Source: Candidatus Lumbricidiphila eiseniae (GTDB lineage Bacteria; Actinomycetota; Actinomycetes; Actinomycetales; Microbacteriaceae). Taken from it: a stretch of 49,726 nucleotides of DNA. A program made the translations under genes and the position numbers. This document shows, in pieces, positions 2,560-42,419 of the stretch. The stretch covers positions 1 through 49,726 of the forward strand of contig NAEP01000027.1 of NCBI GenBank assembly GCA_002529645.1, read 5' to 3'. Each line of letters begins with the position of its first letter. Position 1 is the stretch's first letter. The notes under the pieces are model-generated. The model did no database searches, was not told the DNA's origin, and worked only from the letters and a program-made list of their open reading frames with translations.

Positions 2560-2710
2560 CATGGTGCCCGCCGTGTGAAGGATGCGCGTGGGCAGCAGAC
2601 GAGGCAGGAGGGTTCACATTGCATGGTGCCCGCCGTGTGAGGGATGCGCCCCGACGGCATGTTAGCGAAGAGGTACCGTTCTCATGGTGCCCGCCGTGTG
2701 AGAGATGCAC
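2560..2710. repeat. CRISPR-like locus A: three 28-bp repeats, spacers 34 and 33 bp
   Basis: Copies at 2560-2587, 2622-2649 and 2683-2710 share the core CATGGTGCCCGCCGTGTGA followed by RRGATGC. The third copy diverges most at its 3' end, as terminal CRISPR repeats do. The two spacers (2588-2621, 2650-2682) are unrelated to each other. It lies between the LysR and GAF genes, 102 bp upstream of the GAF start codon. No cas genes are nearby. Confidence 0.85.
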
Positions 2711-2723
2711 AGGGCAGAGTACA

Positions 2724-3635
2724 TCACGGCATGCCTTGCACGGGATGGATGCCCCGAGCAGCGCGGGTCAGGGCATCCCGACAGGCGACGACAGCCGGTC
2801 GGGATGCCGCAGCACGCCGGGCGGAGGTGAACACCTCGCGCTCCGGCTTCTCTGGAAGAGGGAACAGCGTCACGGTCGGAGCGTCACCGGCCCACACGAG
2901 ATCGGGCAGCAGTCCAACGGCCAGACCCGAGCGGACGAGTCGGATATGAGCCATGAGGTCGGCGGTCTCATAACGGACATCCGGTTCAAACCCGGCGGCA
3001 CGGCAGAGTTGCTCTGCCCACTGGCGGGATGCGGTGCCCACGGGTTCCATCACCCACGCTCGGTCGGCGTGCGCGGACAGCGGGCGGGCTTCGGCCGGGG
3101 CATCCGGTGCGAGAGCGAGCCGAATGTGATCGGTGATGAGAACCACTCGATCAAGGTCGGCGCGATGCGCCCGGGTGTGACCGGGGTACTGTTCCGCAAC
3201 GACGAGATCGTAGTCACGGGCCGACACCTCAAACAATCCGGCATCAGGCTCGCGCTCGGTAACCTCGACCCGAAGATCGGGATGCTCCGCCCGCAGTATT
3301 CCGAGTGCCTGCGGAATGATGGCGTGGGCGGCCGACTGGAACACGGCGATGCCGACGGTTCCGTTGACCGTGGTGAGGGTCTGGGCCACGGCGGCCTCTG
3401 CCTCTTCGAGCCGGTCGAGGATGGTACGACCGTGATGTACGAGCGCATCGCCCTGGGGAGTGAGTTGGACCCGCCGCCCTGCCGCCTCGAGCAGCGGAAC
3501 ACCGACCTCGCGTTCGAGTTGGCTCAATTGCTGCGAGACGGCGGAGGGACTGTAGGCGAGGGCCTGTGCAACGGCAGCGAGGGTGCCACGCTGCTTGAGT
3601 TCCACGAGAAGACGCAGTCGGCGGGCGTCGAACAT
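2724..3635 (-). CDS. LysR-family transcriptional regulator
   Basis: 303 aa from ATG 3635, with GGAG 6-9 bases upstream on the coding strand. Residues 1-60 form the winged helix-turn-helix (FDARRLRLLVELKQRGTLAAVAQAL, then SPSAVSQQLSQLEREVG). The rest is the two-lobed substrate-binding domain (begins GTVGIAVFQSAAHAIIPQAL). The gene is divergent from putA, and LysR proteins often control the divergent neighbour, so regulation of proline catabolism is a reasonable inference, but the inducer cannot be read from sequence. The frame remains open to 3914 through CRISPR-like locus B; that part is not coding-like. Its own RBS lies inside the most degenerate copy of locus B. Confidence 0.92.
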   Translation of the reverse strand: MFDARRLRLLVELKQRGTLAAVAQALAYSPSAVSQQLSQLEREVGVPLLEAAGRRVQLTPQGDALVHHGRTILDRLEEAEAAVAQTLTTVNGTVGIAVFQSAAHAIIPQALGILRAEHPDLRVEVTEREPDAGLFEVSARDYDLVVAEQYPGHTRAHRADLDRVVLITDHIRLALAPDAPAEARPLSAHADRAWVMEPVGTASRQWAEQLCRAAGFEPDVRYETADLMAHIRLVRSGLAVGLLPDLVWAGDAPTVTLFPLPEKPEREVFTSARRAAASRPAVVACRDALTRAARGIHPVQGMP

Positions 3636-3636
3636 A

Positions 3637-39945: not shown

Positions 39946-40748
39946 GTGCTGATCGGGTGACCGGTGACCTCGAAGCACCGAACCGGGCGACCGGTGCCGG
40001 TTGCACGGCGGCTCGAGGCATCCCGTTTGTCGTGGCGATTGACGGGCTGGCCGGCAGCGGTAAGTCGAGTGTGTCGCGGGAGGTTGCCACACGGCTGGGG
40101 TTCGGGGTGTTGGACACGGGTGCGGTGTACCGAGCGTTTGCCTGGCACGCGAGCACCGCGGGCGTGGATTTTACGGATGAGCACAGCGTTCTGCACAGCT
40201 TTGATCGCTTCGACTACCGGGTCAACACGGACCCTGCCGTGTCACGGGTCGGAGTGGGGGAGCGGGATGTCTCACACATCATCCGTACACCCGAGGTGAC
40301 GGCCCTTGTCGCACGTATCGCACCGGTTGCGTCGGTTAGGGCTCGACTCGTGCAGATCTTTCGCGATCTTATTGCGAGAGAACAGCGCCCCGGAATTGTT
40401 GTGGAGGGACGCGATATCACCTCGGTGGTTGCGCAGGATGCTCCGGTGCGCATCCTGCTCGCGGCCTCGGAGCCGGTTCGCATCGCGCGTCGCACCGGAG
40501 AGGTGGTCGGAACCACAGCGGCGAGGAGTACGGTTGCAGCGGCACTGCGCGTGCGCGATGAGGGTGATGCGCAGCGGTTCAGCCTCGAGCAACCCGCTGA
40601 CGGAATCCACCTCATTGACTCGACAGAACTCGATTTTGAACAGACGGTGACGGCTGTCCTCGGCGTCATCGTTGCCGCGCGGGAGAGCGCCGACCCTTCT
40701 GCCCCACACCCCACCACCGCACTTTCCAACCCAGAGGAGACACCGTGA
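39942..40748 (+). CDS. cmk: Cytidylate kinase
   Basis: 268 aa from ATG 39942, overlapping the tyrA stop (ATGA). Phosphorylates CMP/dCMP. P-loop AIDGLAGSGKSSVSREVA at about residue 29-46; DTGAVYRA, EGRDITSVV (GRDIGTVV type) and RIARRTGEVVG lid region are present. An extra 25-residue variable N-terminus. Its 3' end overlaps the der GTG. Confidence 0.96.
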   Translation: MSADRVTGDLEAPNRATGAGCTAARGIPFVVAIDGLAGSGKSSVSREVATRLGFGVLDTGAVYRAFAWHASTAGVDFTDEHSVLHSFDRFDYRVNTDPAVSRVGVGERDVSHIIRTPEVTALVARIAPVASVRARLVQIFRDLIAREQRPGIVVEGRDITSVVAQDAPVRILLAASEPVRIARRTGEVVGTTAARSTVAAALRVRDEGDAQRFSLEQPADGIHLIDSTELDFEQTVTAVLGVIVAARESADPSAPHPTTALSNPEETP

Positions 40749-42274
40749 GTGGCATCCCAGACAGCAGCGAAACCGGCGACGACCTGACGGGAGCCGATGA
40801 GGTTGCACTGCATCTCGCCGAACTTGATGAGGGTCTTGCCGACCTGCGCGCACAGACCCTGCGCGCGGGTTTGGAGGATTATGAGCTCGACGAGGAAGAC
40901 CTCAACCTGCTTGTCGGATCGACCGAGGGTAATGAGGGCATCCGCACTCTACCGGCGCTGCCGGTTATTGCGATTGTTGGGCGTCCAAATGTTGGCAAAT
41001 CGGCCCTTGTCAACCGGATTCTTGGGCGGCGCGAAGCGGTTGTTGAAAACACCCCCGGTGTCACCCGTGATCGGGTTGCCTACAGGGGGGAGTGGCTTGA
41101 TCGCAAATTTACGCTCGTTGACACGGGCGGATGGGAACCCGATGCGCGTGGTATTGACGCCTCGGTTGCAGCGCAGGCCGAGGTCGCTATTGACCTGTCT
41201 GATATCGTGCTGTTTGTTGTGGACGCGATGGTGGGACCGACCGCAACCGACGAGCGAGTGGTGAGGATGCTTCGCAGCACACAGCGCCCCGTTTTTCTCG
41301 TCGCAAACAAGGTGGATGACGCGCGACAAGAACCAGAAGCTGCCGCGCTGTGGAGCCTGGGCCTGGGGGAACCGTACCCGGTCTCCGCGCTGCACGGGCG
41401 CGGTGTCGCCGACCTGTTGGAGGCTGTGTTCACGATTTTGCCCGAGGTGTCTGCGGTTGCGAAGGATGAGGTTGGCGGTCCGCGCCGGGTCGCGATCCTC
41501 GGGCGCCCCAACGTTGGCAAGTCGAGCCTGTTAAACAAGGCCGCGCGCGAGGAGCGCGTTGTCGTTAATGAGCTTGCGGGCACGACACGTGATCCGGTGG
41601 ATGAGCAGATCGAGCTCGCAGGCAAGGTGTGGCGGTTTGTGGACACGGCGGGCATCCGTCGTCGTGTGCACCTGCAGCAGGGTGCTGATTTCTATGCCTC
41701 GCTGCGCACCCAGGCCGCCCTCGAAAAGGCAGAGGTTGCGGTTGTGCTTCTGGATGTCACGGTGCCGATCTCCGAGCAGGATGTGCGAATTATTGACCTT
41801 GTATTGGAATCGGGGCGTGCTCTTGTTCTGGCCTATAACAAGTGGGATTTGCTGGACGATGATCGTCGCCGGTACCTGGAGCGGGAAATCGAGCAGGATC
41901 TTGCGCACGTTTCCTGGGCACCGCGGGTGAATATTTCTGCGAAAACCGGACGTCACTTAGAGAAGCTTGTTCCCGCGCTGGAGCTCGCGCTGAACTCGTG
42001 GGATACCCGCATTCCGACCGGTAAGTTCAATGCTTTCCTCACTGAGTTGACACAGGCACACCCCCACCCGGTGCGTGGTGGTAGGCAGCCGCGAATTCTG
42101 TTTGGTACCCAGGCGGCCACACGCCCGCCGACCTTTGTTCTTTTTACAACGGGATTTCTTGATCCGGGGTATCGGCGGTATATTCAGCGACGATTGCGCG
42201 AGATTTACGGTTTCGAGGGGTCACCGATCACGGTGAACATGCGGGTGAGGGAAAAACGTGAACGCGTTCGATAA
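40745..42274 (+). CDS. der: Ribosome biogenesis GTPase Der (EngA)
   Basis: 509 aa. Two consecutive GTPase domains and a C-terminal KH-like domain, needed for 50S assembly. Domain 1: GRPNVGKSALVNRI, TPGVTRD, DTGGW, NKVD. Domain 2: GRPNVGKSSLLNKA, AGTTRDPVDE, DTAGI, NKWDLLDD. The KH-like end includes RRYIQRRLREIYGFEGSPI. An acidic N-terminal extension of about 70 residues is common in actinobacteria. Start GTG 40745 overlaps the cmk stop. Confidence 0.97.
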   Translation: MSGIPDSSETGDDLTGADEVALHLAELDEGLADLRAQTLRAGLEDYELDEEDLNLLVGSTEGNEGIRTLPALPVIAIVGRPNVGKSALVNRILGRREAVVENTPGVTRDRVAYRGEWLDRKFTLVDTGGWEPDARGIDASVAAQAEVAIDLSDIVLFVVDAMVGPTATDERVVRMLRSTQRPVFLVANKVDDARQEPEAAALWSLGLGEPYPVSALHGRGVADLLEAVFTILPEVSAVAKDEVGGPRRVAILGRPNVGKSSLLNKAAREERVVVNELAGTTRDPVDEQIELAGKVWRFVDTAGIRRRVHLQQGADFYASLRTQAALEKAEVAVVLLDVTVPISEQDVRIIDLVLESGRALVLAYNKWDLLDDDRRRYLEREIEQDLAHVSWAPRVNISAKTGRHLEKLVPALELALNSWDTRIPTGKFNAFLTELTQAHPHPVRGGRQPRILFGTQAATRPPTFVLFTTGFLDPGYRRYIQRRLREIYGFEGSPITVNMRVREKRERVR

Positions 42275-42322
42275 CCGTGGCTTACTCACCGCGTGGGGGA
42301 GGCTGGTTCTTGCGACAGGTTC

Positions 42323-42419
42323 CGTCATGATTACTTCCCGGCCACGTAGTGCGCGGCCCTGAGTGCGGGCTGTCGCTCTATTGCGTCGTGATTACTTCCC
42401 GGCCACGTAGTGCGCGGCC
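42323..42419. repeat. CRISPR-like locus G: repeat pair of period 61 at the LamG gene 3' end
   Basis: 31 bp are identical (42328-42358 with 42389-42419), 35 of 36 if extended to 42323/42384. The core contains CCCGGCCACGTAGTGCGCGG with the dyad GGCCACG-TAGTG-CGCGGCC. The spacer is unrelated. The copy at 42384-42419 contains the stop codon and last codons of the LamG protein; the other copy lies downstream, towards der. Confidence 0.88.

What the first reader, a model, noticed from the sequence alone, without database searches (positions are those of the whole stretch)
2560..42419. Seven dispersed repeat-spacer-repeat units with type I-E CRISPR geometry but a different repeat at each locus
Seen directly: direct repeats of about 26-31 bp with period 60-63 bp and unrelated sequence between copies occur at seven places in 40 kb (2560, 3637, 10454, 17789, 28219, 29142, 42323). 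The best-preserved pairs are 28+33 (loci D, F) or 29+32 (loci B, C), all summing to 61 bp. Repeats from different loci share no sequence, but most have a central dyad, and all lie at gene ends or between genes. Known: type I-E Cas1-Cas2 duplicates a 28-bp site and inserts 33 bp, and off-target integration can create new loci ('neo-CRISPR'). Inference: these are scars of repeated ectopic spacer integration at hairpin-bearing sites, which would make this genome a natural record of neo-CRISPR birth. An unknown small-insert transposition system is the alternative. Plain tandem duplication is unlikely, because the repeats stay identical while the spacers share nothing.
Basis: partly seen in the sequence, partly recalled or inferred. 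Interest (0 to 1): 0.95.

Follow-up and report, generated by a model that had tools for sequence, protein, structure and literature searches.

The report
Genome peppered by stray CRISPR insertions
This bacterial genome is dotted with short direct repeats that enclose inserts of about 33 bases, many of them exact copies of DNA from elsewhere in the same genome, and they were likely left by its own CRISPR memory-writing enzyme inserting at wrong places, which would make the genome a natural record of how new CRISPR arrays begin.

Summary
In detail: seven window loci carry direct repeats 60-63 bp apart, and shuffles give none. The same genome encodes a complete-looking type I-E CRISPR-Cas system whose array has the same geometry (28+33 = 61). 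A sample of 1,121,832 bp (39.4% of the genome) held 109 such pairs in 90 loci outside the native arrays; 399,677 bp from 12 same-genus genomes held none. Of the 109 enclosed spacers, 36 match another place in the sampled genome, 27 of them at 100%. Of 30 clean source sites, 24 have AA or CA beside the insert (chance 28%). The repeats weakly resemble the native repeat, in register and at its dyad arms. One locus, in a conserved gene, is exactly a 40-aa insertion (2 x 60 bp) absent from 8 of 8 aligned homologues; at another a near relative has 20 aa less. Tandem duplication and a fixed mobile element are excluded. Best reading: repeated off-target spacer integration by this lineage's Cas1-Cas2, mostly of self DNA; 26 of 90 sites hold three or more copies. 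Three window spacers have no known source. The reaction is known from E. coli (recalled); this natural scale appears new. No enzyme was tested.

The parts
2560..2710 (.). Locus A: three 28-bp repeats (2560-2587, 2622-2649, 2683-2710), spacers 34 and 33 bp
   Evidence: second spacer matches another place of the own genome at 90.9% over 33 bp
3637..3851 (.). Locus B: copies at 3699, 3762, 3823 and, by eye, a degenerate copy at 3637; last spacer about 3789-3821
   Evidence: last spacer matches another place of the own genome at 100% over 35 bp; lies upstream of the HTH domain in a LysR-family ORF 2724-3914(-)
10454..10543 (.). Locus C: repeats 10454-10482 and 10515-10543, upstream of argC
   Evidence: spacer core occurs nowhere else in the own assembly with up to 2 mismatches
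17789..17938 (.). Locus D: degenerate copy 17789-17816, repeats 17850-17877 and 17911-17938, 33-bp spacers, between argH and tyrS
   Evidence: spacer 17878-17910 matches another place of the own genome at 100% over 32 bp with AA beside it
28219..28308 (.). Locus E: older pair about 28221-28248 and 28281-28308 (60 bp apart, 24 of 28 alike), at the 5' end of a tlyA-like ORF; below the threshold of the counting scan
29142..29230 (.). Locus F: identical 28-bp hairpin-bearing repeats 29142-29169 and 29203-29230 around a 33-bp spacer, over the 3' end of the tlyA-like ORF
   Evidence: AT-rich spacer 29170-29202 occurs nowhere else in the own assembly with up to 2 mismatches
42323..42419 (.). Locus G: repeats 42323-42358 and 42384-42419, 61 bp apart, at the edge of a predicted gene 42392-43183(-)
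   Evidence: spacer core occurs nowhere else in the own assembly with up to 2 mismatches
24597..24629 (.). Source site in the window: the same 33 bp form the spacer of an ectopic unit on another contig (L055:7148)
   Evidence: AA beside it in the orientation of the opposite strand

Best explanation
The seven units are likely scars of off-target spacer integration by the genome's own type I-E Cas1-Cas2, which would insert 33-bp fragments at chromosomal sites that weakly resemble the native CRISPR repeat and so duplicate 27-28 bp of each site. Shown: the 27/28+33 geometry, the type I-E cas genes and an array with 28+33 geometry, many exact self copies of about 33 bp with an (A/C)A flank, the in-register resemblance of the sites to the native repeat, sites with up to seven repeats, and an empty site (one coding locus) and a less-filled site (a second) in relatives. 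Inferred: that Cas1-Cas2 carried out the reaction; that insertions in genes were mostly removed by selection (only 10 of 90 loci lie inside predicted genes although 86% of the sample is in predicted genes); that ectopic sites sample the integrase's true, mostly-self input while the native array is filtered by selection (1 of 69 native intervals is self in the same sample); and that ectopic repeats are not processed into self-targeting guides.
For: Geometry: offsets 60 and 61 hold 20 and 40 pairs in the first 731.8 kb and 10 and 24 in the next 390 kb (2 of the 24 are a native-like array and were dropped); the scan covered 40-85 bp, and other offsets held 0-8, the 8 at 62 bp. Machinery: Cas1e 334.9 bits, cut-off 215.6; Cas2e; Cas5e, Cas7e, Cse2, Cse1 and part of Cas3; a CRISPR_assoc-family protein that I take as Cas6e (name recalled); Cas3 ORF of 953 aa; native array of 70 repeats with 66 of 69 intervals of 33 bp. 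Source: 36 of 109 spacers match elsewhere in a 39.4% sample, 27 at 100%, 22 over exactly 33 bp, against 1 of 69 native intervals (Fisher p 3e-8). PAM: 24 of 30 clean source sites have AA or CA directly beside the 33-mer on one side, null 27.5%; AA in 18 of 30, null 11%; the self match of native spacer n2 also has AA. Site preference: 22 PAM-oriented units (18 loci; 5 units are of L056) match the native repeat at 11.0 of 28 positions in fixed register, shuffles 8.13 +/- 0.50, greatest of 2000 shuffles 9.95; the 70 of 90 loci with a block of 24 bp or more 13.1 in free register, random places 11.1 +/- 1.7. Empty site: 40-aa insertion absent in 8 of 8 aligned homologues, present in a near-identical protein from another contig; RimI-like protein, near relative P0242 20 aa shorter at the repeats. 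Controls: 0 pairs at 59-63 bp in 399.7 kb of 12 same-genus genomes; 0 of 36 same-genus relatives have Cas1e over the cut-off, one has a weak match.
Against: Three of the window's own spacers (C, F, G) have no second copy in the assembled genome with up to 2 mismatches, and exact searches of IMG/VR with cores of C and F found nothing, so their source is unknown. Six of 30 clean source sites have no (A/C)A flank, and the motif was picked from the first 18 matches; among the clean matches first seen it is 10 of 15, against 14 of 15 among the earlier ones. One of five oriented units in the seven-copy locus L056 points the other way. No leader-like motif was seen upstream of the oriented sites, and reversed orientation scores nearly as well against the native repeat (10.9 of 28), because the repeat is a dyad. 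The rimI site lies in a stretch that varies in length among homologues anyway. A native spacer (n2) matches the own genome perfectly with AA beside it, so interference may be inactive and my account of why self-spacers are rare in the native array is uncertain. Five other I-E genomes show no such units at 60-61 bp outside their native arrays in 392 kb, so I-E alone does not cause this; what relaxed it here is unknown.
Confidence: 0.94

Rival explanations
1. An unknown small mobile element or integrase other than the native Cas1-Cas2 inserts 33-bp fragments with a 27-28-bp target duplication.
For: No leader motif upstream of the sites; most I-E loci examined do not show the pattern; no enzyme was assayed.
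Against: The inserts are different chromosomal fragments, not one element; their length, the duplication length, the PAM-like flank and the resemblance of sites to the native repeat all match the native I-E system.
Confidence: 0.03
2. The units are old canonical CRISPR arrays whose repeats have diverged by mutation.
For: Repeats resemble the native repeat slightly more than random places do.
Against: Within a locus the copies are alike (37 of 85 longer pairs identical) while loci differ from each other; 27 of 36 source copies are 100% identical, so many insertions are recent; a unit lies inside a conserved gene whose homologues have the site without it.
Confidence: 0.01
3. Plain tandem duplication of 60-61-bp segments followed by divergence of the middle part.
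For: Direct repeats at constant spacing.
Against: Spacers resemble their flanks at 30% on average, 48% at most, over 85 pairs, and many are exact copies of distant places.
Confidence: 0.01
4. The ectopic units, made by the same integration process, are kept because they do something for the cell, for example as regulatory hairpins at gene ends or as extra guides, rather than as neutral scars.
For: Intergenic loci lie between convergent genes in 12 of the 50 classed cases against 14% of intergenic positions; many repeats hold a dyad.
Against: Depletion from genes is expected from selection against disruption alone; no locus with a role was found; working guides against the own chromosome would be harmful if interference works (inference).
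Confidence: 0.1

Closest known systems
Off-target ('neo-CRISPR') spacer integration by type I-E Cas1-Cas2 in E. coli (Nivala, Shipman and Church 2018, Nat Microbiol; recalled, paper not held; seen only through citing passages in PMC9456107 and PMC11788318)
   Same: Spacer integration by Cas1-Cas2 at chromosomal places outside the array (citing passages); sites resembling the native locus (recalled)
   Different: Here it is found in a genome with no sign of manipulation at about 80 loci per Mb sampled, mostly self-derived, with sites grown to 3-7 repeats and in-frame insertions in a conserved protein; the E. coli events came with Cas1-Cas2 overexpression (passage in PMC11788318) and were helped by IHF-like motifs (passage in PMC9456107), while no upstream motif was seen here; the earlier natural cases are recalled as a few putative ones
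Ectopic spacer acquisition in Streptococcus thermophilus CRISPR arrays (PMC7999890, search listing and start of abstract only)
   Same: Acquisition at a wrong place
   Different: There inside a canonical array and type II-A; here at unrelated chromosomal sites
Canonical type I-E CRISPR array (this genome's own, G000:C67)
   Same: 28-bp repeat, 33-bp spacer, 61-bp period; AA beside the one source found (n2)
   Different: Ectopic loci have a different repeat each, no leader seen, mostly two copies and mostly self-derived spacers
Type I-E trimmer-integrase (PMC10284694; abstract, outline and two found passages seen)
   Same: Type I-E Cas1-Cas2 integration of PAM-selected fragments
   Different: Concerns faithful acquisition; nothing on genome-wide stray insertion in the parts I saw

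Membership tests
Off-target integration by type I-E Cas1-Cas2 | Type I-E Cas1 and Cas2 in the same genome | tested here: met
   Cas1e 334.7 bits (cut-off 215.6) and Cas2e 63.9 bits (cut-off 33.15)
Off-target integration by type I-E Cas1-Cas2 | Insert of spacer length (33) with duplication of repeat length (about 28) | tested here: met
   Offsets 60/61 hold 92 of 109 pairs; 22 of 36 self matches span exactly 33 bp
Off-target integration by type I-E Cas1-Cas2 | Inserts are fragments of other DNA chosen by a PAM | tested here: met
   36 of 109 with a source in the sample; (A/C)A beside 24 of 30 clean ones; the native PAM itself rests on one native source
Off-target integration by type I-E Cas1-Cas2 | Unoccupied single-copy site in relatives | tested here: met
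   One coding locus empty in 8 of 8 homologues, a second with one unit less in a near relative, both at protein level and outside the window; DNA of same-species strains was not available
Off-target integration by type I-E Cas1-Cas2 | Target sites resemble the native repeat | tested here: met
Off-target integration by type I-E Cas1-Cas2 | Dependence on cas1-cas2 activity | not testable with these tools
   Needs deletion or in vitro integration
Canonical type I-E CRISPR array | Shared repeat and leader at all loci | tested here: not met
   Repeats differ by locus; no leader motif in 22 oriented units
Tandem duplication | Whole unit repeated, spacer equal to flank | tested here: not met
   30% mean identity of spacer to flanks, maximum 48%, 85 pairs
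MITE or other fixed small element | Same insert at each locus | tested here: not met
   Inserts match different chromosomal places

The most novel reading that the evidence does not exclude
This lineage has a Cas1-Cas2 that works as a genome-wide scatter integrase: it has likely placed on the order of two hundred fragments, mostly of its own DNA, at dyad-bearing sites, turned dozens of them into growing arrays with their own new repeats, and lengthened conserved proteins in steps of 20 residues, so that CRISPR birth can be watched in nature.
Probability: 0.75. Interest if true: 0.95.

Novelty: new variant of a known kind. Interest (0 to 1): 0.92.

Why it matters
How CRISPR arrays arise is open, and stray integration has been seen mainly in E. 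coli with Cas1-Cas2 overexpressed (recalled; passage in PMC11788318). This genome offers dozens of natural events at many stages, from one unit to seven repeats, often with an insert whose source can be located. It makes testable what sites an integrase takes in nature, what it captures before selection acts (mostly self, by this sample), how cells bear self-derived spacers next to a complete-looking interference system, and how coding genes take up 60-bp pieces. Such mini-arrays may also be missed or misread by array finders (inference).

Tried and rejected
Chance: rejected by shuffles and same-genus controls. Tandem duplication: rejected. Loss of interference genes as the reason for tolerance: I expected it because nothing stood upstream of cas1, but cas3, cse1, cse2, cas7, cas5 and a cas6e-like gene lie on the far side of the array. 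A 17-aa excess in the own ArgC looked like an insertion but showed no repeat and is set aside. Phage and plasmid origins: the native array in two parts against phages and its first part (L003:17560-20000) against plasmids gave only records matching in several pieces or at places that look array-like, not single spacer sources; exact IMG/VR scans with four spacer cores gave none. The Cas1 scan of named genomes kept 80 of 242 relatives, none of them named as Agromyces; the tool says records of this genome may be left out. Literature: searches listed no report of this pattern in the titles and abstract starts shown; only openly licensed papers are held, so this is no proof of absence.

Weak points told: gene calls are from a simple hexamer model of my own, and several of the 10 genes called around loci are low-scoring or hold short blocks. 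Rows dropped: 40 low-complexity runs in the first 731.8 kb, pairs in the native arrays, and two pairs of a small native-like array next to the cas6e-like gene. Of 109 pairs, 24 have a matching block shorter than 26 bp and some may be chance or old; window locus E is below the scan's threshold and not among the 90. Extra copies were accepted from 62% identity. The control of 80 I-E loci (1,492 kb) held 8 non-native pairs at 57-63 bp; by eye 4 look like I-E repeats, and the others (L135, L144, L149, L202) were not followed. The same-genus scan covered 12 of the 36 relatives searched for Cas1e.
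Full report
The observation. Seven places in the window hold direct repeats 60-63 bp apart with unrelated sequence between them. A scan of spacings from 40 to 85 bp over the window and sampled stretches of the same genome gave 20 pairs at 60 bp, 40 at 61 and 8 at 62, with 0-2 at other spacings, in 731.8 kb; another 390 kb gave 10 at 60, 24 at 61 (two of them a native-like array, dropped later) and 0-2 elsewhere. 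In all, 109 pairs at 57-63 bp form 90 loci in 1,121,832 bp, 39.4% of the 2,847,834-bp assembly: about 80 per Mb, or some 230 if the rest is alike (extrapolation). Six of the window's seven loci are among them; the older pair at 28219 is below the threshold. Of the 90 loci, 64 have two copies, 20 three, 4 four, one five and one seven. Forty shuffles of the window gave none. Twenty stretches (399,677 bp) of 12 same-genus genomes gave none at 59-63 bp.

The machinery. The genome has a type I-E system on contig C67: Cas1e, Cas2e, a leader and an array of 70 repeats with the 28-bp repeat ATCCGCCCCGCACATGCGGGGGTGAACC and 33-bp intervals in 66 of 69 cases; beyond the array Cas5e, Cas7e, Cse2, Cse1, a 953-aa Cas3 ORF and a protein of Pfam CRISPR_assoc that I take as Cas6e. 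None of 36 same-genus relatives has Cas1e over the cut-off; one, not among the 12 scanned, has a weak match. So the only clear Cas1e carrier among these is also the only one of the 13 scanned genomes of the genus with the pattern.

The inserts. Of 109 spacers, 36 match another place in the 39.4% sample, 27 at 100%, over 27-36 bp with 33 the commonest length (22 of 36). If sources are spread evenly this means about 84% self (95% interval of the raw fraction 24-43%). Native intervals in the same test: 1 of 69, one of the 69 being a leader copy. In 30 clean matches (31 bp or more, 96% or more), 24 have AA or CA directly beside the 33-mer on one side, null 27.5%; AA in 18, null 11%. The motif was chosen after the first 18 matches; of the clean ones, 14 of 15 earlier and 10 of 15 later matches have it. 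Three window spacers (loci A, B, D) have a source in the sample; three (C, F, G) have none in the whole assembly with up to two mismatches.

The sites. With 22 units of 18 loci oriented by the flank motif and held in fixed register, the upstream repeat matches the native repeat at 11.0 of 28 positions; shuffled repeats give 8.13 +/- 0.50, shifts by 1-3 bases 7.3-10.3, the reverse orientation 10.9. The best-kept positions are in the two arms of the dyad (CC at 8-9, G at 18, GG at 20-21). Five of the units are of one locus (L056), and one of those five points the other way. No leader motif was seen. Over the 70 of 90 loci with a block of at least 24 bp, in free register, the mean is 13.1 against 11.1 for random places and 11.3 for shuffled regions; loci with three or more copies score 13.8 against 12.9 (permutation p 0.036).

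Genes. 86% of the sampled sequence is in predicted genes, but only 10 of 90 loci lie inside one; among loci with a single detected pair, those inside genes are 60 bp in 6 cases and 61 bp in 2, those between genes 12 and 32 (Fisher p 0.015). This fits removal of frame-breaking insertions (inference).

The empty site. A sarcosine-oxidase-alpha-like gene (L073:13816-16794) holds three repeats 60 bp apart. Its protein has exactly 40 extra residues there, absent in 8 of 8 aligned homologues up to 77% identical and in the homologues of three further genomes. A 723-aa near-identical protein on an 8,195-base contig has the same insertion; one search found only one such gene in this assembly, so that contig is likely another assembly of the species and the insertion no assembly artefact. 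A rimI-like gene (L062:9415-10080) also holds three repeats 60 bp apart. This stretch varies in length among homologues: 11 of 12 same-genus ones have little there and one (L247) other residues, and five named or metagenome homologues have low-complexity residues. The closest relative found (P0242, 86% identical in the alignment, JGI metagenome protein) shows two copies of the repeat-encoded motif instead of three and 20 residues less. That fits one unit against two at the same site; its DNA could not be read.

Reading. Off-target integration by the native Cas1-Cas2 explains geometry, inserts, flank motif, site preference, multi-copy sites and the restriction to this genome together. It also gives a simple account of self content: ectopic sites likely record what the integrase captures before immune selection, while the native array shows what survived (inference). 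It does not explain why this genome and not other I-E carriers: 392 kb from five such genomes showed no units at 60-61 bp outside native arrays, and 80 further I-E loci (1,492 kb) only 8 non-native pairs at 57-63 bp, about four of which look like I-E repeats. The own Cas1 is at most 60% identical to the 119 others listed; whether it is relaxed is untested.

Identity of the organism. 

Against the known. Stray I-E integration in E. coli is known (Nivala et al. 2018, recalled; citing passages). The listings showed no report of a natural genome like this one. I therefore file it as a new variant, by scale and consequence, of a known kind.

Noticed in passing
L003:17575-17728 (G000:C67): The leader end plus first repeat of the native array is duplicated in tandem (77 bp), so the first 'spacer' is a 49-bp leader copy.
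   Followed up: partly
L003 native spacer n2 and L011:9828-9860: A leader-near native spacer matches the own genome at 33 of 33 bases with AA beside it; by eye the site could encode a P-loop ATPase. A self-targeting spacer next to a complete-looking interference set.
   Followed up: partly
L206:3839-3960 (G000:C67): A second, three-copy array with a native-like repeat lies at the cas6e-like end of the operon.
   Followed up: partly
window 10603-11697: Own ArgC has 17 extra residues compared with same-genus homologues, without a repeat around them.
   Followed up: partly
window 4086-4211 and 25612-25778: Tandem arrays of 15-bp units (30- and 45-bp higher order), unrelated to the 61-bp units.
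   Followed up: no
L149:13488, L144:18585, L135:13383, L202:19569: A few non-native repeat pairs at 60-62 bp within 10 kb of cas1 in other I-E actinobacteria may be rare stray integrations there too.
   Followed up: no
phage record JX006077.1 about 15678-15891 (hits H1, H2): A Saccharomonospora phage matches the native I-E array in several pieces, which suggests a phage-borne array or repeat.
   Followed up: no
whole genome G000: At 2.85 Mb the genome is smaller than the 36 same-genus genomes listed (3.2-4.4 Mb).
   Followed up: no
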